From a virus, in IMG/VR virus record IMGVR_UViG_3300032116_000916, positions 1-30,714 of that record: 30,714 nucleotides of DNA. One strand, given 5' to 3'. The translations under genes and the position numbers were made by a program. The notes below the pieces were generated by a model. The model was not told the DNA's origin and made no database searches. It worked only from the letters and a program-made list of their open reading frames with translations. Shown here one piece after another: positions 357-13,852 of this stretch; within the stretch, counting starts at the first letter, position 1, and the number at the start of each line of letters is the position of its first letter.

Positions 357-773
357 TTACCACTTCCGACACGACCAATAGCGTGCTTTGGTACGTGGGC
401 CTGGGTTTGCACAATTATGACGAGCTCTAAATGACTTACGACGAGCTGGATTGGACTTCTTGATTCTCATCGTCTTGTCACCAAAGTTGACTTTCTTGAC
501 ATTACCAGTACTTGGGTCTTTGACGAATACTTTGAACTTCTTAACGTCCCCACGCATTGGTTTTCCAAGAGGAACCTTGCGACCGTGATATTCAGCTTCT
601 TGTAATGGTTGACCAGCTGCCCGTACAATTTCTGTGGCCAAACAACGTGGACAATATTCTTCAATAATATCTTCTTCGTTAATAGGTACGCAGTTGGGTA
701 CCATCTTTCCATCTTTCATCTTTCCACCAACTGCCTTATATCCTTCCCAACAGGCTTCATTTAAGTTTTCCAT
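357..773 (-). CDS. Small basic Cys-containing phage protein with two conserved modules
   Basis: A 138-residue protein. The start is the ATG at 773-771, with AAGGAAG 6 bases upstream and TAA-T-ATG spacing to the previous gene. A longer reading from 869 lacks this support. Residues 6-30 hold a short module with ACWEGYKAVGGKMKDGK and VPNC. C41 and C44 form a CPRC pair. Residues 79-138 form a very basic module (FKVFVKDPSTGNVKKVNFGD, RRKSFRARHNC, ARYWSCRKW) with C121 and C135. I recall both modules from aquatic T4-like phage proteins, where they can be parts of longer chains. Zinc binding by the cysteines is possible but not shown. Nucleic-acid binding or a role in the head is an inference from charge and context. 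Confidence 0.8.
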   Translation of the reverse strand: MENLNEACWEGYKAVGGKMKDGKMVPNCVPINEEDIIEEYCPRCLATEIVRAAGQPLQEAEYHGRKVPLGKPMRGDVKKFKVFVKDPSTGNVKKVNFGDKTMRIKKSNPARRKSFRARHNCANPGPRTKARYWSCRKW

Positions 774-774
774 A

Positions 775-1107
775 TTATTCTTCCTTTTTCTTAAATGTGG
801 ATACCATTGTTGGTTTTCCACCTGGATTTCCTGCCTTACGCTTTCTAACGACTGCTGACCGCTTTTCACCTTTACTCATCGCTGCTGCGGAGCGGGCTGG
901 GCGGCACTTTGGATATTTGGCAGAACCGCCCTTTCGTTCTCCCTTACCAGCTGAAGCTCCACATGGTGGATGCTTACCGGTTTTTGGGTCTTTACGAGAA
1001 ATATCTACCCACTTTTGACGAAGCCACTTACCAAGACTTCCTTTGGTCTTGTACTTTTCGTCAAGGTCAACAGATACTTCTACAAGTAAGTCAGCAAATC
1101 GTATCAT
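775..1107 (-). CDS. Small basic phage protein with Cys pair (CRP motif)
   Basis: A 110-residue protein. I chose the ATG at 1107-1105 because it overlaps the stop of the previous gene as ATGA, and because the resulting N-terminus MIRFADLLVE matches that of the neighbour (VIKLADLIPE). A longer form from 1161 would overlap that gene by 58 bases. No strong Shine-Dalgarno is visible, so translational coupling is likely. Residues 27-70 hold KWLRQKWVDISRKDP, PPCGAS and YPKCRP with C49 and C68. The rest is Lys/Arg/Gly rich and ends in FKKKEE. I recall this CG...YP.CRP pattern in phages and giant viruses, without a known function. The protein is probably a DNA- or head-associated basic protein. Confidence 0.78.
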   Translation of the reverse strand: MIRFADLLVEVSVDLDEKYKTKGSLGKWLRQKWVDISRKDPKTGKHPPCGASAGKGERKGGSAKYPKCRPARSAAAMSKGEKRSAVVRKRKAGNPGGKPTMVSTFKKKEE

Positions 1108-1571: not shown

Positions 1572-1934
1572 TTATTTAAGGAATTTGAGTTTGTAAACTG
1601 TACTGGAAATTAATCCTGCAATTTCATCTACGGTATTGTTTAATTCACCGTCTTGTGGAAGTTGACCACGCAGTTCGTCCACAAACTTTTGTAACCCCAT
1701 AAAATAGCTGACGGTTGAATCATCTTCCAAAATAGTGTTACTTGGCTTGTATCCCTTCAGAATACCATAACGACCTTGGTAAGATTCTACGTAGGTATCA
1801 ATCAAGTCCACAATATCTTCATAATATCCTTGTAATGCTTTGTGTTGCGCATATGAAGGAGTTTGAAGATGAAAGATGTGTGCTTGTTCTCTACTAGATA
1901 AAAGGATAGAGATAAACTTAACTACCGGTTCCAT
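1572..1934 (-). CDS. Helical ferritin/Dps-like phage protein (DUF5856-like)
   Basis: A 120-residue, almost wholly helical protein. The ATG at 1934-1932 overlaps the previous TAA by one base (TAATG). Visible landmarks are an N-terminal SSREQAHIFHLQT, then SYAQHKALQGYYEDIVDLID, YVESYQG, and a C-terminal DEIAGLISSTVYKLKFL. The spacing of H, D and E residues on amphipathic helices resembles small Dps/ferritin-like phage proteins that I know as DUF5856. In Dps proteins such H/D/E sets hold iron and protect DNA. Whether this protein binds metal is not shown. It lacks an evident signal peptide or membrane segment. It sits among head-type small proteins, so a role with packaged DNA is possible. Confidence 0.78.
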   Translation of the reverse strand: MEPVVKFISILLSSREQAHIFHLQTPSYAQHKALQGYYEDIVDLIDTYVESYQGRYGILKGYKPSNTILEDDSTVSYFMGLQKFVDELRGQLPQDGELNNTVDEIAGLISSTVYKLKFLK

Positions 1935-2818
1935 TACTTTTTACCTTCTTCTTTCTTATGTGGGCGGTATCCCTTTTTCTTCATCCAATTTGCTAATGCC
2001 CAAGGATTATCAATTTCCTTATGTTTCTTCATTGCTAATACAGTCTTTTCCCAACCTTCTGGAGCAACTTCATTGACAGATTCTTTCATAGCCGCCATAT
2101 CTTGGTCTACTGGCTTATCAGTCTTTTCCTCGTCCCCATATTCGTGATAACTGGTATTTGCTTGGTCGAGATTATTTTCAGCAACTGCGATATGGTCTTG
2201 AATCCATGCTGGAATATCTTTTTCTTCTGTTCCAATTTTACCCTTTAATTCCGTTGCATGCTTGATAATCGAATCAAGTGTTTTTGATGCCATTGAAACT
2301 TCGTGGTCTTCTCCCACTGCCTCATCTGTAGTTTTACCTGCACGAAGTTTTGCTAAATCGTCGGCTTCAATCTTTCCGTCCTTATCAACGTCAAGTTTCT
2401 TCTGACCAGCAGTTAATTCTTCCATTTGAACCAAAAGCTCATCAACCTTCTTTTCTTGGTCTGGGGTCATTTGCATTCCCTTGAGCTTCTTTAATTTCAT
2501 TCCAACCAACGACTTTTTATCAACAGCTGCAGTTGGAGCTGGTTCTTCGTGTGATTCTTCTTTTAATGCTTGTAGATTCACTAATCCTGACAATCTAATC
2601 ATGTTATTCTCCAACTTCGGTGTAGAAAATTCTGTGGATTTGGTACTCTTTTGTGCTGCTTGATATTGCTTATACAATCTTCTTTTTGCCATTATATACT
2701 TGTCATTTTTATCAATCTTACCATCATTATTGACATCAGCATCTTCGGACCCCGGTGGGTCGTGACGCTTATGTGCGTGCTTGTATTGTTCAAAGTTAAA
2801 AAATGACTTATATTGCAT
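1934..2818 (-). CDS. Multi-module phage protein with two EF-hand loops
   Basis: A 294-residue protein with ATG at 2818-2816 and GGAAG upstream. Modules in order are: MQYKSFF opening (1-7); EF-hand loop at 28-39 (D28, N30, D32, G33, I35, D36, D39); an internal MIRLSGLVNLQALKEE at 73-88; a second EF-hand loop at 143-154 (D143, D145, D147, G148, I150, D154); a helical module at about 173-227 (EVSMASKTLDSIIKHATEL, IPAWIQDHI, YHEY); and a C-terminal module at 255-287 (GWEKTVLAMKKHKEIDNPW, ANWMKKKGY). I recall the last two from aquatic phages. The loops should bind calcium by analogy with EF-hand and dockerin loops. A scaffold or internal head role is inference. The internal MIRL peptide could be an old fusion joint. 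Confidence 0.8.
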   Translation of the reverse strand: MQYKSFFNFEQYKHAHKRHDPPGSEDADVNNDGKIDKNDKYIMAKRRLYKQYQAAQKSTKSTEFSTPKLENNMIRLSGLVNLQALKEESHEEPAPTAAVDKKSLVGMKLKKLKGMQMTPDQEKKVDELLVQMEELTAGQKKLDVDKDGKIEADDLAKLRAGKTTDEAVGEDHEVSMASKTLDSIIKHATELKGKIGTEEKDIPAWIQDHIAVAENNLDQANTSYHEYGDEEKTDKPVDQDMAAMKESVNEVAPEGWEKTVLAMKKHKEIDNPWALANWMKKKGYRPHKKEEGKK

Positions 2819-3218: not shown

Positions 3219-4802
3219 TTACAGTAACCACCGTAAATTTTCCTTTTCTTGACCAATTTGCATCTCATACGGATTCTTATTCATATTATTTGAACTGTAT
3301 ACCATAGTTCCTAATTGATACTTCGCCTTATCTATTGCTAATTTGGTCAGCTCGATACCCTCTTGACGTAATCTTAGGGCAGTATCCCGTACCCATAACC
3401 CGATACAAAGGGCCAGTACCAAGTCGTCATTGTACCCAGACAATGCTTCTGGACGGCCATTTTTCCAAATAAAAGTTTCTAATTCTGCTATTAATCGACT
3501 TGACCGAATGGTAAAAGAATTATCTAGCATATATTCCTTCAATCGGTTAATAATAAGTGGACGAGTACGTTGGGAAATCATAAATCCAGGCACCATACCC
3601 CGTTCTTCCTTATGATATTTTCCAGTCATCTGGTGTTCTACGTCTACATATTGTAAGTCTCTGGACATATAAAATAGATTTTTATACCCACGGTCAATAA
3701 TTTGTTGGATGGCGTTCCATCCTATACTGCTATTGTCTGGGATAAGGAGAGCGTCATTATATTCCGTTGCGATAGACACCAACATATTGCCAAACTGTTT
3801 GGTTTCGACTTTTCCTTTATATTCTGCTACTTGTATTGACCGTTCTATATCAATTACGTGAAAAGTGGAATAGTCCTCTCCATCTCCACGGGAAACGTCG
3901 GCACAGACAATATAGGACTTTCCAGCTTGAGGATATTCCCATATCCACGTATTTCCATCAAACCCGCCTTTTGTTATAGGGTCTTGTACAAACGAAGATT
4001 TATAAAATTCAAGAATTTCTGCGGGGATGACATTGTTACCAGAAAAGATAAAAGACGCGTCATGCTCTTGAATTGCTTGCATTTCACCCATCAGTTCTGT
4101 CTGACGGTCACGCCATGCTTGGTCACGTTCTGGATGAACTCTCCAATCCAACAAAATAGGATTGAACCCATTAGATTTTGATTCAGCTTGTTGCCACATC
4201 TTATGGAAGAAGTTACCAACACCATTTGGCGTAGACAGTAGAATTGCTTTTCCACCCGTTGACAGTGTACTGGATGCTGCCGTCCAGATGATTTCTGCGT
4301 CATCAATGAATGCACATTCGTCAAGAATGAGAAGTGACAATGCTTCAGAACGTCCGGCGTCTGGTGATGATGCGACCGCTTTAATTTGTGAACCATTTGC
4401 AAATTGTAAAGACAACTTATTGTCTGTTACCACGCTTCCTCGTAACCACACGGGAAGATTTTGATGCATAAACTTAACTTTTGTAACCAAGTTCTTCGCC
4501 GTTTCTTGTTTGGTTGCGATAACTAATATATTCTTATCTTTATGGAACAACATTAACCACAACGCATACCCTGCGACAAGTGTGGAAATACCAATCTGAC
4601 GACCTTTGAGAACAATATTATAATCACTTTGTTCAAAATCTTTTAATGCGTCCTTCTGATAGTGATATAAATCAAACAACACCCGACCACGAATCGGGTG
4701 TTGAATGTACGAATATCGTGATAAGAAATATGACGGGTCTAATGCACACTTCTTAAATTCTTCTTTAATCTTGTCACGTAACTGTTGCGCCGTAGCGTTC
4801 AT
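3219..4802 (-). CDS. terL: Large terminase subunit (gp17-like, ATPase and nuclease)
   Basis: A 527-residue packaging motor that would pump DNA into the prohead at the portal and cut it. The N-terminal ATPase has a Walker A region at 66-74 (KGRQIGIST). It lacks the usual Lys before Ser/Thr and instead has K66 at the front, as in the deviant P-loops of lambda-type terminases. Walker B is LLILDE (D161, E162), and the coupling motif STPNG is at 190-194. The C-terminal RNase H-type nuclease shows D302 (VCADVSRGD), D356 (IPDNSS) and D459/D460 (GYNDDLVLAL). Length is somewhat below T4 gp17 (610). AAGAGG precedes the ATG at 4802. No small terminase gene is recognised nearby. Confidence 0.97.
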   Translation of the reverse strand: MNATAQQLRDKIKEEFKKCALDPSYFLSRYSYIQHPIRGRVLFDLYHYQKDALKDFEQSDYNIVLKGRQIGISTLVAGYALWLMLFHKDKNILVIATKQETAKNLVTKVKFMHQNLPVWLRGSVVTDNKLSLQFANGSQIKAVASSPDAGRSEALSLLILDECAFIDDAEIIWTAASSTLSTGGKAILLSTPNGVGNFFHKMWQQAESKSNGFNPILLDWRVHPERDQAWRDRQTELMGEMQAIQEHDASFIFSGNNVIPAEILEFYKSSFVQDPITKGGFDGNTWIWEYPQAGKSYIVCADVSRGDGEDYSTFHVIDIERSIQVAEYKGKVETKQFGNMLVSIATEYNDALLIPDNSSIGWNAIQQIIDRGYKNLFYMSRDLQYVDVEHQMTGKYHKEERGMVPGFMISQRTRPLIINRLKEYMLDNSFTIRSSRLIAELETFIWKNGRPEALSGYNDDLVLALCIGLWVRDTALRLRQEGIELTKLAIDKAKYQLGTMVYSSNNMNKNPYEMQIGQEKENLRWLL

Positions 4803-4811
4803 AAGAACCTC

Positions 4812-5465
4812 TTAGAATATGAATACTTTCAGTAATATTCCACCAATCACACCACCGACGAATGCTTGTTTCCGAGTAATCATTGGAAACAATGGTGGTT
4901 TTGGTGGGGTCGGGATGTTGTTAACGACTCGTTGGAGACTATCACGGGAAAGTGTTAAAAGTGTGATAGTTGAATCTTTGTTGACGATTGCGTTGTTTAA
5001 ATTTTCAATTGCGGTTACTTGACTACTGATTGTTACGGTTTGTTGACTGATAATAGAATCTTGTTTAGGAATAATTAAACGTGCCATTTCAGTTGAGTCC
5101 GTAATAGTCTCCTTTAACGAGTCTAAATCTTCACGCAGCACCGTAGTTCTCATACGAGACGCCAATGCCGTTTGTTGTGCGGTTTCTGCCCGAGCCATAG
5201 CAGCACGAGCATTATTTTCTTGTATAACAATCTCTGTAGCGAGACTGTCCGCATACTTAGATGCGAGTTCGGATTGTTCCTTGAATTCTCTCATTTGGGC
5301 TAGGTAAGATTGTTCTTTCTTGTCAAAATAACTTGTATTGACAACCATTACTATTGCAAATGTTGCGATTGCAGTGAGAACCAGTTTAATATATGGCATG
5401 AGAGCGGTTAATGTCTCAGCCGTTAGTTTCGTCGCTTCTAGAAACTTCTTCACCGTTGGCTTCAT
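4812..5465 (-). CDS. Membrane-anchored coiled-coil protein
   Basis: A 217-residue protein. I chose the ATG at 5465-5463, six codons inside the longest reading, because GGAG lies 6 bases before it. Residues 24-43 form a strong transmembrane segment (LVLTAIATFAIVMVV). Residues 48-180 are a long polar coiled coil rich in Gln, Ser, Thr, Glu and Asp. A Pro-rich hinge follows (IPTPPKPPLFP), and residues 201-217 form a second hydrophobic Gly-rich segment at the very end. A spanin (Rz-like) has the first two features but not the second hydrophobic end. Lysis or membrane tethering are guesses. The gene overlaps the previous one by 50 bases and sits just upstream of the terminase. Confidence 0.8.
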   Translation of the reverse strand: MKPTVKKFLEATKLTAETLTALMPYIKLVLTAIATFAIVMVVNTSYFDKKEQSYLAQMREFKEQSELASKYADSLATEIVIQENNARAAMARAETAQQTALASRMRTTVLREDLDSLKETITDSTEMARLIIPKQDSIISQQTVTISSQVTAIENLNNAIVNKDSTITLLTLSRDSLQRVVNNIPTPPKPPLFPMITRKQAFVGGVIGGILLKVFIF

Positions 5466-6054
5466 CGTCTTCTCCAGTACCATATTGTTCTATCGTTACT
5501 CTTAAGTTTTCTTGTAACATTTCTATATCTTTTTTAAGGTCTGCCTTTACCTTTTCAATATCAACATCCCACTTTTCAACCATCAAAATTTTAGTTTCGT
5601 CCGCATTGATAAATTCTGGTTTACTGACTGTATCGTGGTAGTGCTGTAGTTCTACAATCTTATCACGAACTTCTGCAATATAATTGCGTAACATTATTTT
5701 ACGTTCATACTCCTCCCATTTTCCTTGGCGGCGAAGTTCGGTTTCATCCTTAATTACACAATCCATACAATGCCCACGAATACGCCAGAATTTCATATCA
5801 AATCTATGATTCATTGGTTTACTACACCGTGGGCACCACCATGGAGTTTTTGCTGAGTCCAATTTTGTTACTCTGGTTTTTACTCCGTTTTTCATTTCCC
5901 ACTCTTTTCCTTCGATGTCAGTCCATCGGTCACCTTCAGTACGAGTTGGTTCTGCTTGTCCCCTCCACCCAAATACTAATTTGCTATCATCTTTATTTAA
6001 CTTCTCAGCGACCTTACGGCGTACATCATTTAATGCCTGTTCATTTTTAAACAT
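5416..6054 (-). CDS. Zinc-ribbon protein with C-terminal coiled coil
   Basis: A 212-residue protein with ATG at 6054-6052 preceded by GAGG at 4 bases. The first 70 residues hold LNKDDSKLVFGW and WTDIEGKEWEMKNG. Next comes a four-Cys ribbon, WWCPRCSKPMNHRFD then GHCMDC, which should bind one zinc. A helical region follows with LQHYHDTVSKPEFINADE and EKWDVDIEKVKADLKKDIEML, ending in an acidic tail. I recall the whole arrangement from aquatic T4-like phages, where it is uncharacterised. Its place just before the terminase block makes a small-terminase or DNA-recognition role possible, but no helix-turn-helix is visible, so I leave the function open. Confidence 0.82.
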   Translation of the reverse strand: MFKNEQALNDVRRKVAEKLNKDDSKLVFGWRGQAEPTRTEGDRWTDIEGKEWEMKNGVKTRVTKLDSAKTPWWCPRCSKPMNHRFDMKFWRIRGHCMDCVIKDETELRRQGKWEEYERKIMLRNYIAEVRDKIVELQHYHDTVSKPEFINADETKILMVEKWDVDIEKVKADLKKDIEMLQENLRVTIEQYGTGEDDEANGEEVSRSDETNG

Positions 6055-6060
6055 ATAACC

Positions 6061-8838
6061 TCACTTGGTTGCGAATGTCTTTGCTCGTTCTTTACTACCA
6101 AAATACTTAATTTGATTCTTTTTATTTTTTCCACCCCAATTTCCACCAACAGTTTGCCACGTTTGACCAGGTTTGTATTGTGACGCGTCATTTGATGGTT
6201 GTGTATCAACTGTCGGTTTCTTTTTTGGTTTCTTTTCTAATTCTGGTGGTTTAACTTTTTTCTTTTCTGGTTTACCGTGTGTGTCAGTTACCTTACGTTC
6301 TTCTTCTGCTTTTGATGCGCCTTTCACAATTTTATTAAACATTTCTTGGTCAAACTTTCCATATACCTTGGTAAATATTTCTTGTTTCGCTCTATCGGTA
6401 ATATTATCATCGCCGAGTATCGCACGTAACTGTGTTCCACTAATATTCTTTCCATTAATAGTAAGCTGCATTTCTGGAGCCACTATAAAATATCCCTTTT
6501 TTTCATATCCAACTGTAGATGTTTTTGGGTCATACGGTTCGAAATATTTTCCACCACCCAATCTGTCTGCATCCTTCTGACTGACCGCAGTAACATATGT
6601 AGTATTTGGTGGGAGCGATTGTAATACTTCTACCGGAGCATATGGATTTTTAACCTGAACAATCATATCTTCTGGAATATCAAACATCCGCGTCATAATT
6701 TGTTCTTTGTCCTTAAATCCAAACGGTGACCGTCCAGCTTCGGTCTTATCACTCGTTGCAATAAAGACATTCTCTTTACCAAATTCCTTGACCATAGAAT
6801 CATAAATGCTGTAATGCCCAGAATGAAATGGTTGAAAACGTCCGGTAAAAATAGCGACAGTTCTACGTTCACCTGGCTTAGTTGGACGTTGAAGCGGTGG
6901 TTTTTCTGATGGTCGTTCTTTTGGTGGTTCTACAAATTCCGCATTTCCCTTATCAAATTTTAACGTACCCAAGATTTGATTAACGGGGGCAAATGCTCCA
7001 GTAAACTTATATGGCTTTCCATTATAAATGAATACCATACCTTCCGTTGGAACAACTTTATCTATGCCTACCGATTCCAATCGTTCGATTTGAGTTTGTA
7101 ACGCTGCGAGCTTGTTTCTATCGTCAGTTTGTCTAATTTGTTTGATGGTATCTAAAACTTCTTGCTTTAGCTTTGCAGCCATTTCTGGATTGTTTGCTGA
7201 TAGGAAGTCCGTGACGCGACGTAATGATAATGCGCCCGTCTTTAAGAAAATACTTTCCAAAGGACGAACAGCTTGTTGTTGCATTTGCTTTAGTTCACTT
7301 CCTTCAAACTGTCTAAACCACTTTTTCTTTTCTGGGTCTTCGATATTTTTAACACCAAATTTCTTATCGCCTAATGCCCATCTACGAATAATACCTTCAC
7401 GTTCTTCTGGTGTCCAGTCAATACCCATATTATCAACCGCGTTTCCCCACCATGCTAGCTTATAATCTTCTACTGTAGAATTGTCATCTAAATCATATTC
7501 TTGTTGTAATCGGGTGATTTGACGACCCATATCCTTTAATGCTTTTTTATTCTCAACCGTTTGTGCGTCACTAAAGCTGATAGTCTTGGGTCCACTAATA
7601 CCAAATGTTTTTTGTTGTTGTGCATTAACCTTGGTAATTTGATTTGACAACGTTCTTCCATCTTCAATAGAACGACCGGTTTCATTTCCTTCTTCGTCAT
7701 ATTCTACTGACCCGTGAAACACTAAAACAGACTTATCATATGGAATAACATTTTTAGTGTCGGGAAACACTATTTCCACATTCATAAATTTTCCACCGTC
7801 CGCAAACATCTTATCTCGTTCTTCTGGTGGTAGTTTATCTATTGCTCGTTGTAAATCTTCTGCTGCGCCGCCAAATGCTTTTTCAATATCGCCTCTACCG
7901 GCGAACATATTTTTGATTCCGGCTACATCTAACGCGTTCTTTCCTTTATTTTTTACTTGACCTTTATTACGTGCAAAGTATACACGACCATCCTTGACCG
8001 TGAACATAATATTCTGTCCATCGAGTTTTTCGGTTACTGGCTCCTCTGCGTCCAGCTCACCGACCAATCCTCGACGAACCATTTCCTTGACATCACGAAA
8101 TGACAATTCATCGTCTTCATATGGATGTGCCATATGTCCCGCTGCCCCACCCTCACTGATAAGAATCCAATTGTCGTATGGAACATTTCCTTCTAATAAT
8201 TCTTCAAGGTATACGTAATTTTCGTTTTTCTTATCACGGCCGTGGTCTTTTTTAGCCAACTTCCAGTTACCGTTTTGTGCACCATTTGGATGATGAACAT
8301 CGTGGTTTTTCATTTTCTTTTTTCCGTATTTCTTGACAGCTTTACGGCGGTCACGGTTACGAGCCACACGGTCTTTGACGGTATCCTTTAGATACTTACG
8401 TACCTTTTCTGGATGCCGCTTATAGTACCGACGAACACGTTCGGTACTGGAATCCGCTTCTCTAAGCTCCTCATCATCTTCTGGACCCAATGAATGAGGA
8501 AATGCGAAAGCGTTGTCTTTATTTTGTGGTTTAATTCCCTCGGCAGGTGCACCGTCACCTCCAGCTTCCCCACCTGCATCACCGCTTGGTCCGCTTGATG
8601 GAATTTCTGCCGGGGGGTTATCTGCCATATATTTATCCCATACCGGTGCATAATGCAACCCCCACACTTTTGCTTGCTTACACTTTTTACGAATTTGATT
8701 ACCCGAGTCGGTTGGGTAAATCGTACAAGCTTTACGCTTCTTTTCATCTAATTTATATAAACGACGATTGAACTCATCAATGTGAGTCTGCTCTATTGAA
8801 ACTTCCTCAAATAATAAATTTATGTCAGATAATTTCAC
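6061..8838 (-). CDS. Fusion: HNH-like segment + ligase-type nucleotidyltransferase + NMNAT-type nucleotidyltransferase
   Basis: A 925-residue protein. It starts with GTG at 8838-8836, overlapping the previous stop as GTGA. Residues 1-130 are charged, with a Gly/Ala/Pro linker at 80-100. Residues 131-205 are very basic and end in DVHHPNG (H182, H183), N191 and H199, an HNH-like order. Residues 235-620 look like the nucleotidyltransferase of ATP- or NAD-dependent ligases: motif I EKLDGQN (K271, D273, G274), MNVEIVFP (E355), EGMVF (E599) and YKFTG (K611). Residues 657-840 are a HIGH-type nucleotidyltransferase of the NMNAT/NadR kind: GRFQPFHSGH (666-675) and ISGTQLR (799-805). A Lys/Pro linker and a small module (GQTWQTVGGNWGGKN) end the chain. 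It may repair or cap nucleic acid, or make NAD. Substrate is unknown. Confidence 0.85.
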   Translation of the reverse strand: MKLSDINLLFEEVSIEQTHIDEFNRRLYKLDEKKRKACTIYPTDSGNQIRKKCKQAKVWGLHYAPVWDKYMADNPPAEIPSSGPSGDAGGEAGGDGAPAEGIKPQNKDNAFAFPHSLGPEDDEELREADSSTERVRRYYKRHPEKVRKYLKDTVKDRVARNRDRRKAVKKYGKKKMKNHDVHHPNGAQNGNWKLAKKDHGRDKKNENYVYLEELLEGNVPYDNWILISEGGAAGHMAHPYEDDELSFRDVKEMVRRGLVGELDAEEPVTEKLDGQNIMFTVKDGRVYFARNKGQVKNKGKNALDVAGIKNMFAGRGDIEKAFGGAAEDLQRAIDKLPPEERDKMFADGGKFMNVEIVFPDTKNVIPYDKSVLVFHGSVEYDEEGNETGRSIEDGRTLSNQITKVNAQQQKTFGISGPKTISFSDAQTVENKKALKDMGRQITRLQQEYDLDDNSTVEDYKLAWWGNAVDNMGIDWTPEEREGIIRRWALGDKKFGVKNIEDPEKKKWFRQFEGSELKQMQQQAVRPLESIFLKTGALSLRRVTDFLSANNPEMAAKLKQEVLDTIKQIRQTDDRNKLAALQTQIERLESVGIDKVVPTEGMVFIYNGKPYKFTGAFAPVNQILGTLKFDKGNAEFVEPPKERPSEKPPLQRPTKPGERRTVAIFTGRFQPFHSGHYSIYDSMVKEFGKENVFIATSDKTEAGRSPFGFKDKEQIMTRMFDIPEDMIVQVKNPYAPVEVLQSLPPNTTYVTAVSQKDADRLGGGKYFEPYDPKTSTVGYEKKGYFIVAPEMQLTINGKNISGTQLRAILGDDNITDRAKQEIFTKVYGKFDQEMFNKIVKGASKAEEERKVTDTHGKPEKKKVKPPELEKKPKKKPTVDTQPSNDASQYKPGQTWQTVGGNWGGKNKKNQIKYFGSKERAKTFATK

Positions 8839-10664: not shown

Positions 10665-10691
10665 CTAACTCAATATAAATAGTTGAGTTAG
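10665..10691 (-). terminator. Stop-codon hairpin with CTATTTATA loop
   Basis: A perfect 9-base inverted repeat, CTAACTCAA and TTGAGTTAG, encloses the 9-base loop CTATTTATA (minus strand). The left arm contains the stop codon of the Mre11/Rad50 fusion gene. The stem is AT rich and is not followed by a long T run (GGACTTTAG), so it is a weak intrinsic terminator at best. It may instead stabilise the mRNA end or be a processing site. The hairpin at 30422-30450 is built the same way with the same loop core. Confidence 0.5.
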
Positions 10692-13600
10692 ACATTAATA
10701 TACGAGAATCCGTCCTCTCGTTTGATTTCAATTACCTTGTCCACCATATCCCGAGCGGTGTCCAAATGACTGATAAGGACAATAAAATCAAACTGCGACT
10801 TCAAGATACCCATCATCGTACCCATAGAACTGAGGTTTTCTGCGTCCAGAACCCCCAATCCTTCGTCAATAATCATAAAGTTCGGTTTTGGGAGATTGGA
10901 GGCGTTCAACAACGCTACACGGATAGCCAGACTACTGATGAATCGTTCCATACCCGACGAGTTCTCTAACGGCCAGATACGTTCGTGGTCGTAGTTCAAC
11001 TTCCCGACGATGTTCTTCCCATCCACTTCAAGAGAGATGGTAAATTCCACGATTTGGGTCAAAATATTATTGATTTCCGACTCAATTGCAGGAATGGCAC
11101 GGGACATCAGTTCATACGGAATACCGTCGCGACAGACTGCTTCCATATAATACTTGTAGGCTTCATAGGTATCTTCAAGTTCTTCAGCTTCCTTGATTTG
11201 ATTCATAATATCAGTCTTGGTTGCTTCCAACACCTTGATTTCTCCGTGGAGTTCCCGAAGTTCCTTCTCTAGCTTATCAACTTCCTTCTTGTTGATGGCA
11301 ATATCTTTAAGGACGCATTGAATCCGTCCCTCTATAATGAGATTATGTTTGATACTTTCTTCGTTTACCTTATGTAATTCAATGTCCTTTTCAATCTGTT
11401 CCCGATTGCGGTCGCACTTTTCAATACTGGTAATCAACTTCTGGATTTCCAGTTCTATTCCACTTGCCTTCTTTTGGAACTGTTGAATTTCGTTTTGTAA
11501 CTTTTCATAATATGCACACAGGTTGACCTTATCAACCAATGGCTCCATCTGTTGTTTGATTTCGTTGACCGCATCGTTTTGCTTGGATTGAAGTTCCCAC
11601 AAGTCAATCAATTCGTGGGTAACCGTCTCCATATCTTCAATAATTGACTTGTTGTTTTCTACGCAGACGTTACAATCTGGATTATATTTGTAACTTTCCA
11701 GTTTAGTCTTGAACTTTTCTTTTTCAGTGACCTTTGATGTGGTCAATTTTAATGCACTACCACCCTTGTTAAATAAAGTAGAAAGTCTGTTATATTCCTC
11801 AACCGATTGACGAAGTTCTGGAAGATTTGCGTCTACTAATTCTTCTGTCTTTTCTCTAATAATATTTTGTATTGATTGAAGTCTATTTTCTTCTTCCGAT
11901 TTACGAGTTTTATATACCCCAATCAGATTATTAGCGTCCACCAATCCTTCTTGTAACTTATCCATATTCAGTTCAATATTAGGAAGTGGACGCTTCTGGT
12001 CCTGTTGTTCCTTTAACTTAGTATCCAGAACATCTCGTTCTTCCTTATATTCCTTAATCTTTTCTTCCAAATTATAATGGTCTACCTTGGTAGTATCCAA
12101 CTTGGTCTGGGTATCCGACAACAGTTGACCGAAATCCATCTTCTTGAACTTCTTCAAGGCTCCTGTCAACTCCTTACTTTCTTCATTCGCAGAATCAAAC
12201 AACTTATCAAAGATATTTAATCCCATAAACTGGATAAGTAAGTCCTTCCGTTCGGAGTGTGACTTGTCAATAAACAGCGCGTTTGCCGTCTGACTACTCA
12301 ACGTGGTCAGTACGAAATCCTCATAACTACCGACATAGTTACGAATATTAGCATTAGTATCACGGCGGTCTTCACCGTTCAATGAGGTATGCGTACCATC
12401 CGAATGCTCCTTCCAGAACGATACGTCTACCTTTACATCACCCGTCTTTTTTCGTGTACCAGTACGACGAATATAGTAAATCTCTTGGTTGATTTCAAAC
12501 TTCAATTCACATTCAAACTGGTCCCGACGATTGTTCATAATATGGTCACCACGGAACGCACGTGGAGTCTTGTCGTAGAGACAGAAGATAAGTGCGTCCA
12601 TAGATGAACTCTTTCCAGATGCGTTCTGAGCAAAGATACCGTGGATGCCCTGCATATGTTCAAAGTCAATCTCGTTGTTCTCACCATACGAGAACATATT
12701 GGAGAACGTGAACTTCAACGGACGCCAGTGGATATTCCGTGACTGGTCATCGTGACTAACTTGTGCATTCAACATCGTGTTGACATTGATAATCTTCTTC
12801 ATCAATTCGTCATCAACGGTTTCGTGATTCCGTTGAATCCAATCTTGAATCAACGTATTCTGCGTATTAACGTTCGTTACATCCGTAGTAATATGATTGA
12901 CCTTTCTATCGGTCACCTTATTCTGGTTGAATCGGTTCTTATTGATACTCAGGTCAATGATGTTGTACCGCTTCCGTAATGCCGCAGTGGTCTTCTTAAT
13001 AAGTGACGTATCGGCGTTCCCCGTGAACAACCGAAGTCGAACATTCTTCGGCATATCCGATGGGAACGCAATCTTTCCTTCTTCCAATTCAAGGGTATAA
13101 TACCCATATGCGTTCGGAAGTTCGTTGAATACGTGTGTACAATCGTCCACATTCCACGAACACCATCCGTGATTCCGTAAGGATTCGCCGTGGTTCTGTT
13201 GGATAAGTGACGAGGAATAGACTATGGCGGGATTGCTTTCTTGGAGAATCTGATACTTGTGGATGTCACCGAGCAATACGATATCGTATCCCGCAAACGT
13301 GTCAACACTTACGTGACGATTGGTGATGACATACTTGATATCGGTCTGTGCGCCGTGGACTGGTCCGTGGTACATCGCAATCTTTTTTGCGGTTTTCCGA
13401 CAGTCGTGAACATCAGGCCATTGCTCACGATCATCCAAGATAGAGAATACTGCAAAGTCTACATCAGCAACTTGGTAAATACCAGAATGCTTGAAGTAGT
13501 GAAGATTTGGATGATTGAGATTCTTGATAATAGGCGTCAAACTATCCAGCCGATTCATATTGGACAGATTGAGGTCGTGGTTACCTGCGATGATAAAGGT

Positions 13601-13852
13601 CGGAGCGATATCGGCAAGATTACGGAGGAACTCTGACGCAAGTTCCACCATCTCTGGACTCATATCGGTCTTAGCGTGAAGGATGTCACCCGCAACGACA
13701 ATCACTCCGTCACTTAAATCTTTCTGACGGAGTTGGTCGTAGAATGTATTGAACGCTTCACGGTATTCATCGTGACGCTTGAACAGTCGGATATGGATAT
13801 CTGCGGTATGTTCTATTTTTCGTAACTTCTTAAATGGGACTTCAATCTTCAT
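10688..13852 (-). CDS. Single-chain Mre11/Rad50 (gp47-gp46, SbcD-SbcC) fusion
   Basis: A 1054-residue fusion of two proteins that T4 encodes separately. Residues 1-250 are a calcineurin-type nuclease: ADIH (D18, H20), AGDILH (D56), GNHD (N91-D93), YHGPVHG (H162, H166) and GDIHK (D196, H198). Residues 380-430 start the ATPase, with P-loop AQNASGKS (408-415). Two long coiled coils flank a zinc hook CNVC (C727, C730). The signature SSGMERF is at 965-971, and Walker B MIIDEGLGVLD has D996 and E997. In T4 the complex resects DNA ends for recombination-dependent replication and host DNA breakdown. The ATG overlaps the primase stop as ATGA. P-loop Gly positions 1 and 4 are both Ala. Confidence 0.95.
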   Translation of the reverse strand: MKIEVPFKKLRKIEHTADIHIRLFKRHDEYREAFNTFYDQLRQKDLSDGVIVVAGDILHAKTDMSPEMVELASEFLRNLADIAPTFIIAGNHDLNLSNMNRLDSLTPIIKNLNHPNLHYFKHSGIYQVADVDFAVFSILDDREQWPDVHDCRKTAKKIAMYHGPVHGAQTDIKYVITNRHVSVDTFAGYDIVLLGDIHKYQILQESNPAIVYSSSLIQQNHGESLRNHGWCSWNVDDCTHVFNELPNAYGYYTLELEEGKIAFPSDMPKNVRLRLFTGNADTSLIKKTTAALRKRYNIIDLSINKNRFNQNKVTDRKVNHITTDVTNVNTQNTLIQDWIQRNHETVDDELMKKIINVNTMLNAQVSHDDQSRNIHWRPLKFTFSNMFSYGENNEIDFEHMQGIHGIFAQNASGKSSSMDALIFCLYDKTPRAFRGDHIMNNRRDQFECELKFEINQEIYYIRRTGTRKKTGDVKVDVSFWKEHSDGTHTSLNGEDRRDTNANIRNYVGSYEDFVLTTLSSQTANALFIDKSHSERKDLLIQFMGLNIFDKLFDSANEESKELTGALKKFKKMDFGQLLSDTQTKLDTTKVDHYNLEEKIKEYKEERDVLDTKLKEQQDQKRPLPNIELNMDKLQEGLVDANNLIGVYKTRKSEEENRLQSIQNIIREKTEELVDANLPELRQSVEEYNRLSTLFNKGGSALKLTTSKVTEKEKFKTKLESYKYNPDCNVCVENNKSIIEDMETVTHELIDLWELQSKQNDAVNEIKQQMEPLVDKVNLCAYYEKLQNEIQQFQKKASGIELEIQKLITSIEKCDRNREQIEKDIELHKVNEESIKHNLIIEGRIQCVLKDIAINKKEVDKLEKELRELHGEIKVLEATKTDIMNQIKEAEELEDTYEAYKYYMEAVCRDGIPYELMSRAIPAIESEINNILTQIVEFTISLEVDGKNIVGKLNYDHERIWPLENSSGMERFISSLAIRVALLNASNLPKPNFMIIDEGLGVLDAENLSSMGTMMGILKSQFDFIVLISHLDTARDMVDKVIEIKREDGFSYINV

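What the first reader, a model, noticed from the sequence alone, without database searches (positions are those of the whole stretch)
6061..8838. One chain joins an HNH-like segment, a ligase-type nucleotidyltransferase and an NMNAT-type nucleotidyltransferase
Seen: H182/H183-N191-H199 in a basic region; EKLDGQN, MNVEIVFP, EGMVF and YKFTG in the order of ligase motifs I, III, IV and V; GRFQPFHSGH and ISGTQLR of HIGH-type nucleotidyltransferases. Known: NAD-dependent ligases release NMN, and NMNAT makes NAD from NMN and ATP. Inference: the fusion could recycle its own cofactor, or it could add or seal NAD- or nucleotide-capped nucleic-acid ends. No family Ia domain of NAD-dependent ligase is visible, so an ATP-dependent or novel end-modifying enzyme is also possible. 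The gene sits beside packaging genes, not beside replication genes, so the enzyme may travel in the virion.
Basis: partly seen in the sequence, partly recalled or inferred. Interest (0 to 1): 0.75.

Follow-up and report, generated by a model that had tools for sequence, protein, structure and literature searches.

The report
Phage protein pairing two nucleotide-transfer enzymes
A protein from a T4-like environmental phage joins an RNA-ligase-like enzyme to an NAD-synthesis-like enzyme; the same pair is kept together in every intact relative found, next to the DNA-packaging gene, which suggests a two-enzyme tool carried in the virus particle into the host, although its chemistry has not been tested.

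Summary
The gene lies on the minus strand (8838..6061, GTG start, 925 aa). Residues 228-628 are a nucleotidyltransferase: AlphaFold pLDDT 92, top structural matches RNA ligases, Lys271 in 75/75 relatives. Residues 658-850 are a HIGH-superfamily nucleotidyltransferase whose nearest solved relatives by sequence are NMN adenylyltransferases; phosphopantetheine adenylyltransferases are equally close by fold. The 'HNH' segment keeps its histidines but not its Asn, so it is only HNH-like.

The ligase-like family has no Pfam or PHROG match above threshold, yet at least 590 IMG/VR stretches encode relatives. In a 90%-non-redundant set, all 65 ligase domains with untruncated context are fused (62) or adjacent (3) to a HIGH nucleotidyltransferase. 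Domain order swaps, genes split, and other HIGH types substitute. The gene sits just upstream of terminase. A likely related cyanophage pair, DUF6267 plus 'cytidyltransferase', is fused in S-PM2; its cytidyltransferase has been found in purified virions. Best reading: a polyvalent-type effector made late, packaged and injected, acting on RNA ends and adenine nucleotides. An NAD-dependent ligase recycling its cofactor is not supported. Substrates and activity are untested.

The parts
6061..8838 (-). whole gene, 925 aa, GTG start (upstream gene ends at 8835, 4-base overlap)
8461..8838 (-). residues 1-126: N-terminal region and low-complexity linker, no known family
8221..8460 (-). residues 127-206: HNH-like module (two helices plus a beta hairpin; H182, H183, D198, H199 invariant, N191 variable); also present in relatives in other positions and without the ligase domain (L017)
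6955..8157 (-). residues 228-628: RNA-ligase-type nucleotidyltransferase domain (motifs I K271, Ia R290, III E355, IV E599, V K611)
8026..8028 (-). codon of Lys271, predicted site of covalent nucleotidylation (EKLDGQ)
   Evidence: 75/75 relatives
7063..7665 (-). residues about 392-592: long, mostly helical stretch between motifs III and IV
   Evidence: secondary structure of model
6289..6867 (-). residues 658-850: HIGH-superfamily nucleotidyltransferase, NMNAT-like (GRFQPFHSGH, ISGTQLR)
   Evidence: PF01467 above gathering score, PHROG 395, PDB profile 1f9a 8.9e-9, fold
6064..6288 (-). residues 851-925: basic C-terminal tail
3219..4802 (-). terminase large subunit, conserved downstream neighbour
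   Evidence: PHROG 2 1.5e-48; conserved in relatives
5416..6054 (-). 212-aa gene between this gene and terminase; relatives recur across the fetched loci
4812..5483 (-). 223-aa gene between this gene and terminase; relatives recur across the fetched loci

Best explanation
The protein is a virion-delivered, polyvalent-type effector of T4-like phages, and its selected core is a pair of nucleotidyltransferases working in one pathway. It is made late with the terminase, packaged in the head and injected with the DNA (inferred). In the new host the RNA-ligase-type domain takes AMP from ATP onto Lys271 and passes it to 5'-phosphate ends, most likely of RNA broken by host nucleases (inferred). The HIGH domain joins an adenylyl group to a small phosphorylated partner, most likely NMN, giving NAD (inferred), so the pair restores RNA and NAD that host defence destroys. 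Shown here: fold and active-site conservation of both domains, their constant pairing, and the position beside terminase. Inferred: packaging of this protein, injection, substrates and function.
For: Ligase-type domain: pLDDT 92.1, pTM 0.88. Its best matches are RNA ligases: fungal Trl1 Z 9.7 (209 aligned, 4.9 A), Naegleria RNA ligase Z 9.4 (184 aligned, 3.7 A), T4 Rnl1 Z 8.5, T4 Rnl2 Z 7.9, above DNA ligases (about 6) and capping enzymes (about 5.5). Foldseek ranks 1-11 are all RNA ligases. Catalytic motif residues are invariant in 75 relatives. HIGH domain: Foldseek E 4.8e-5, prob 1.00 to archaeal NMNAT, Z 12.3 to NadM. Pairing: 65/65 untruncated non-redundant contexts, in both orders, split genes, or with other HIGH families; single copy in 8 genomes. 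Terminase is found at 0.5-3.3 kb on the same strand in 102 of 117 ligase ORFs. Some chains add HExxH, ParB-like and other modules, as in polyvalent proteins (PMC5512222). The likely related DUF6267 + cytidyltransferase pair is fused in S-PM2 and adjacent in other cyanophages. Its T4-GC190 member was found in S-SM1 virions (PMC3037559).
Against: Foldseek E-values of the ligase domain to solved structures are only about 0.003, and Pfam RNA_ligase matches are all below the cut-off. Motif V has one Lys (K611) with Thr613 where RNA ligases usually have a second Lys. No polynucleotide kinase or phosphatase domain is seen in this chain. Several relatives encode other RNA or DNA ligases. NadV is found in only 2 of 8 genomes. 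A strict T4-type capsid-targeting pattern occurs in 3 of 90 genes (0.37 expected), which is weak. DUF6267 homology to this domain is not significant by hhalign (E 0.026). No virion mass spectrometry was found for this exact family.
Confidence: 0.42

Rival explanations
1. NAD-dependent ligase with built-in cofactor recycling: the ligase domain uses NAD, releases NMN, and the fused NMNAT turns NMN back into NAD.
For: Constant pairing of the two domains; NMNAT is the nearest sequence relative of the HIGH domain; motif V 'YKF' has a single Lys.
Against: No Ia or DNA_ligase_aden match; listed structural matches are ATP-type RNA ligases; L086/L097/L183 and W03 pair the ligase domain with other HIGH types that are less NMNAT-like.
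Confidence: 0.12
2. Counter-defence by NAD repletion: the HIGH domain is a virion-carried NMNAT that restores NAD after host NADase defences, and the ligase-type domain is an independent passenger.
For: NMNAT-like proteins are reported in cyanophage virions (PMC10665884, PMC9602691); phages use NadV/NadM for this (PMC9503650).
Against: NadV not found in 6 of 8 records including the 190-kb Mel-JY01 genome, whereas PMC9503650 reports NadM always with NadV; one locus has NadV, a NadM-like gene and a separate member of this HIGH family (L157); 65/65 pairing argues against a passenger.
Confidence: 0.15
3. The HIGH domain makes a nucleotide-activated metabolite (CDP- or ADP-sugar or similar) and the ligase-type domain transfers it or nucleotidylates a protein or DNA end.
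For: HIGH enzymes of cyanophages have been read as NDP-sugar makers (PMC7824862); phosphopantetheine adenylyltransferases match as well as NMNATs by fold; other HIGH families can replace it.
Against: Sequence profile favours NMNAT over the others; no sugar-pathway gene was recognised in this window.
Confidence: 0.18
4. A DNA-end or nick-sealing enzyme acting on packaged or incoming phage DNA, given its place beside terminase and SbcCD.
For: Late packaging position; HNH-like basic module in the chain.
Against: No OB domain seen after the nucleotidyltransferase core; best folds are RNA ligases.
Confidence: 0.1

Closest known systems
DUF6267 (PF19782, T4-GC71) + cytidyltransferase (T4-GC190) pair of T4-like cyanophages, fused in S-PM2 (S-PM2d138)
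   Same: A ligase-like domain (KxDG, GTK, QGD, EG, K-VDR motifs) coupled to a HIGH nucleotidyltransferase, fused or adjacent; the T4-GC190 member is reported in virions (PMC3037559)
   Different: The ligase-like domains are only distantly alike (hhalign E 0.026; Foldseek BFVD E 2.4e-5); the HIGH domain is of the GRFNPPTTGH type; in S-PM2 the gene lies between mazG and primase/nrdA, not beside terminase
T4 RNA ligases 1 and 2, fungal Trl1 and Naegleria RNA ligase (RNA ligase superfamily)
   Same: Nucleotidyltransferase fold, motif I Lys, acidic motifs III and IV, motif V Lys
   Different: Long helical stretch between motifs III and IV, Thr in place of the second motif V Lys, no recognisable C-terminal domain, fused HIGH domain, Pfam match below threshold
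Archaeal-type NMN adenylyltransferase and NadM
   Same: GRFQPFHxGH, SPF, ISGTxxR, fold (Z about 12)
   Different: No Nudix or kinase partner; usually no NadV found in the same record; conserved K755-D756-R759 block of its own; substrate unproven
Polyvalent proteins of phages (Iyer et al. 2017, PMC5512222)
   Same: Long multi-enzyme chains near virion genes, with metallopeptidase-like and ParB-like modules in relatives
   Different: The passages I found in that paper do not describe an RNA-ligase plus NMNAT-type pairing

Membership tests
RNA ligase nucleotidyltransferase superfamily | Motif I lysine (KxDG) | tested here: met
   K271, D273, G274 in 75/75
RNA ligase nucleotidyltransferase superfamily | Motif III and IV acidic residues | tested here: met
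   E355 and E599 in 75/75
RNA ligase nucleotidyltransferase superfamily | Motif V KxK pair | tested here: not met
   K611 invariant but the second position is Thr613 in 75/75
RNA ligase nucleotidyltransferase superfamily | Fold | tested here: met
   pLDDT 92 model; RNA ligases head the VIA list, Z up to 9.7, followed by DNA ligases and capping enzymes of the same superfamily; Z values are moderate
RNA ligase nucleotidyltransferase superfamily | Pfam PF09414 above gathering score | tested here: not met
   38/75 members match weakly, best E 0.003, window member 14.2 bits against 27
RNA ligase nucleotidyltransferase superfamily | Self-adenylylation and strand joining | not testable with these tools
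   needs purified protein
NAD-dependent DNA ligase (LigA) | PF01653 adenylation domain with Ia | tested here: not met
   no match in P0001 at E up to 1; a strongly diverged domain could be missed
NMN adenylyltransferase (HIGH superfamily) | HxGH and SGTxxR motifs | tested here: met
   H675 76/76, R805 75/76, H672 66/76
NMN adenylyltransferase (HIGH superfamily) | Closer in fold to NMNAT than to other HIGH enzymes | tested here: inconclusive
   NadM Z 12.3, NMNAT 12.0, PPAT 11.5: tied
NMN adenylyltransferase (HIGH superfamily) | NMN specificity | not testable with these tools
   the profile alignment to 1f9a covers only the two ends of the domain and leaves out the middle
NadV-NadM NAD salvage of phages | NadV in the same genome | tested here: not met
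   PF04095 in 2 of 8 records; none in the Mel-JY01 record, titled complete genome
HNH endonuclease | conserved H-N-H | tested here: not met
   histidines invariant, Asn191 in 16/35; no Pfam HNH match
Polyvalent protein | several disparate domains in one chain, linked to virion genes | tested here: met
Polyvalent protein | present in the virion and injected | not testable with these tools
   reported only for the related cyanophage pair or NMNAT-like proteins (PMC3037559, PMC9602691)

The most novel reading that the evidence does not exclude
The two domains act in sequence on one RNA end: the HIGH domain adds or removes NMN at a 5'-triphosphate (making or undoing an NAD cap) and the RNA-ligase-type domain adenylylates or joins the same end, giving phages an injected RNA cap-editing and sealing machine.
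Probability: 0.08. Interest if true: 0.92.

Novelty: new variant of a known kind. Interest (0 to 1): 0.62.

Why it matters
A large phage family without a model in the libraries searched (at least 590 IMG/VR stretches, next to terminase) would gain a testable function, and so might DUF6267, a widespread unannotated cyanophage gene whose neighbour is carried in virions. The constant pairing of an RNA-ligase-type and an NMNAT-type enzyme suggests a link between nucleic-acid end repair and NAD-type chemistry at the moment of infection.

Tried and rejected
PDB sequence search with the ligase profile gave only chance hits. hhalign of the ligase family against DUF6267 was not significant (E 0.026), so I claim that relationship only as likely. 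A strict T4 capsid-targeting pattern was too weak to use (3/90 against 0.37 expected; other genes of the same loci also exceed shuffles, 18/754 against 1.9). I considered an artefactual gene fusion: rejected, because the chain is one open frame and dozens of distinct relatives have it. LigA did not appear among the listed fold matches; this is not evidence of absence. Paper searches for GRFQPFH, DUF6267 and ligase-NMNAT fusions returned nothing, in an open-access library only. tblastn against named phage records found only Mel-JY01 and two uncultured jumbo-phage genomes with the ligase domain.

Full report
What is there. The finding's coordinates hold a single open frame on the minus strand, 8838 to 6061, 925 aa from a GTG that overlaps the preceding gene by four bases. 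The window is an IMG/VR fragment of 30,714 bases with T4-like tail and baseplate genes (my reading), a terminase large subunit downstream, and a 603-aa gene, an SbcD-SbcC fusion and a primase upstream.

Ligase-type domain. No library model matches residues 228-628 above threshold: Pfam RNA_ligase gives 14.2 bits against a cut-off of 27 for the window's domain, and 38 of 75 relatives match it weakly. A profile of 75 relatives finds nothing credible in PDB sequences. AlphaFold gives a confident model (pLDDT 92.1, pTM 0.88). Foldseek against the PDB ranks RNA ligases 1 to 11, with E about 0.003-0.015. VIA-align gives Z 9.7 for fungal Trl1, 9.4 for Naegleria RNA ligase, 8.5 for T4 Rnl1 and 7.9 for T4 Rnl2, then DNA ligases near 6 and capping enzymes near 5.5. 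These Z values are moderate, but the list is made wholly of one superfamily, and its catalytic residues are invariant: K271, D273, G274, R290, E355, E599, G600, K611. Two peculiarities: a mostly helical stretch of about 200 residues lies between motifs III and IV, and the second Lys of motif V is an invariant Thr613. I therefore call it RNA-ligase-type, not a proven ligase.

HIGH domain. Residues 658-850 pass the Pfam CTP_transf_like gathering score. A profile of 76 relatives finds archaeal NMNAT 1f9a at 8.9e-9. The three-part model of residues 123-867 (pLDDT 87.4) matches archaeal NMNAT with Foldseek probability 1.00 and NadM at Z 12.3, but phosphopantetheine adenylyltransferases reach 11.5, a tie. 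H675 is invariant; H672 is not. NMN as substrate is the favourite, not a result.

HNH-like module. Residues 127-206 form two helices and a beta hairpin. H182, H183 and H199 are invariant in 35 distinct sequences but Asn191 is present in 16, and no Pfam HNH model matches. It is a mobile module that also occurs in NMN-HNH-LIG chains and without the ligase domain in L017.

The pair is the unit. In the fetched loci the chains read NMN-LIG, LIG-NMN, HNH-LIG-NMN, NMN-HNH-LIG and NMN-LIG-NMN. After removing near-copies, 65 of 65 ligase domains whose context is complete have a HIGH nucleotidyltransferase fused (62) or in a neighbouring gene (3: L136, L179, L020; L139 is a further split case among the near-copies); six more run off the contig start. 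Some loci came from the NMN-based scan, which biases the count, but the loci from the ligase-only scan show the same. In L086, L097 and L183 the partner is another HIGH type (GGFKPLTGAH ... ISAST) and in W03 (locus L020) the next gene carries a third. The tree suggests one main change of order, with an NMN-LIG-NMN chain (L062) as a plausible intermediate. Such persistence through order swaps, splits and partner replacement argues that the two activities serve one pathway.

Position and delivery. Terminase lies about 0.5-3.3 kb downstream on the same strand in 102 of 117 ligase ORFs; of the rest, only L020 and L136 have more than 5 kb of downstream DNA without it. Relatives add HExxH, ParB-like and a repeated 'NPET' module, as in the injected polyvalent proteins of PMC5512222. 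T4 internal proteins reach the head by a short N-terminal targeting sequence (PMC3012670, PMC5694885). A strict pattern for such a sequence is only weakly enriched here.

A likely cyanophage counterpart. The ligase model also matches, in BFVD, a 591-aa 'cytidyltransferase-like' protein of Synechococcus phage S-PM2 (E 2.4e-5). The 591-aa product of S-PM2d138 is DUF6267 (PF19782, 1.6e-111) fused to a HIGH domain; I take the two to be the same protein from length and description. In most cyanophages the two domains are adjacent genes, labelled T4-GC71 and T4-GC190 in P-HM1 and Syn33. T4-GC190 was detected in purified S-SM1 virions (PMC3037559). NMNAT-like proteins were found in other cyanophage virions (PMC9602691, PMC10665884), whose authors warn of possible carry-over. 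DUF6267 shares the motif order (KxDG, GTK, QGD, EG, K-VDR) but hhalign is not significant.

Mechanism. NAD salvage alone is unlikely: NadV is found in 2 of 8 records, and L157 carries NadV, a NadM-like gene and a separate member of this HIGH family overlapping a DUF6267 gene. An NAD-dependent ligase recycling NMN lacks a LigA match and does not explain the other HIGH partners. I favour an injected effector that adenylylates and seals RNA ends while the HIGH domain forms NAD or a similar dinucleotide. The folds, conservation, pairing and position are shown; packaging of this protein, substrates and biological role are inferred.

Noticed in passing
window 10688-13852 (-): SbcD-like nuclease and SbcC-like ATPase (T4 gp47 and gp46) are fused in one 1054-aa chain (Metallophos 5e-9 at 13-200, SbcC PHROG 77 at 286-1053).
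   Followed up: partly
L157 143-8676: One locus holds NadV, a NadM-like HIGH-Nudix gene, a separate HIGH gene, a DUF6267 gene and a likely Pol-beta-type nucleotidyltransferase gene, the last three overlapping: looks like an operon of nucleotidyltransferases.
   Followed up: partly
L166 5932-7644: The HIGH domain is fused to a different ligase-like domain (EKVDG ... IECEA ... DEGLVLY ... VVKIVDK), a further pairing of the same two kinds.
   Followed up: no
L014, L017, L055, L132 C-terminal regions: A short repeated module (IRNPETGNxIxVxSALxYxxxHPxxKAA, 'NPET') occurs in 79 ORFs of the fetched loci, sometimes twice in a chain; possibly a virion-targeting or DNA-binding unit.
   Followed up: partly
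window 1934-2818 (-): 294-aa protein with dockerin or EF-hand-like calcium loops (Dockerin_1 1.1e-7) in a cluster of small genes after terminase.
   Followed up: no
window 357-869 (-): Protein made of short modules (NCVP and KDPSTGN...KARYWSCR types) that match many unrelated phage families of unknown function.
   Followed up: no
L132 4795-8019: Chain with two HIGH domains, the first degenerate in several conserved positions, plus a Pol-beta-like nucleotidyltransferase and no ligase domain.
   Followed up: no
L020 9244-11214: Gene directly after the lone ligase-type gene ends in a HIGH domain (VGRFQPFTLGH ... ISASVVR) and has an upstream region of unknown fold with a SENLDGS stretch.
   Followed up: partly
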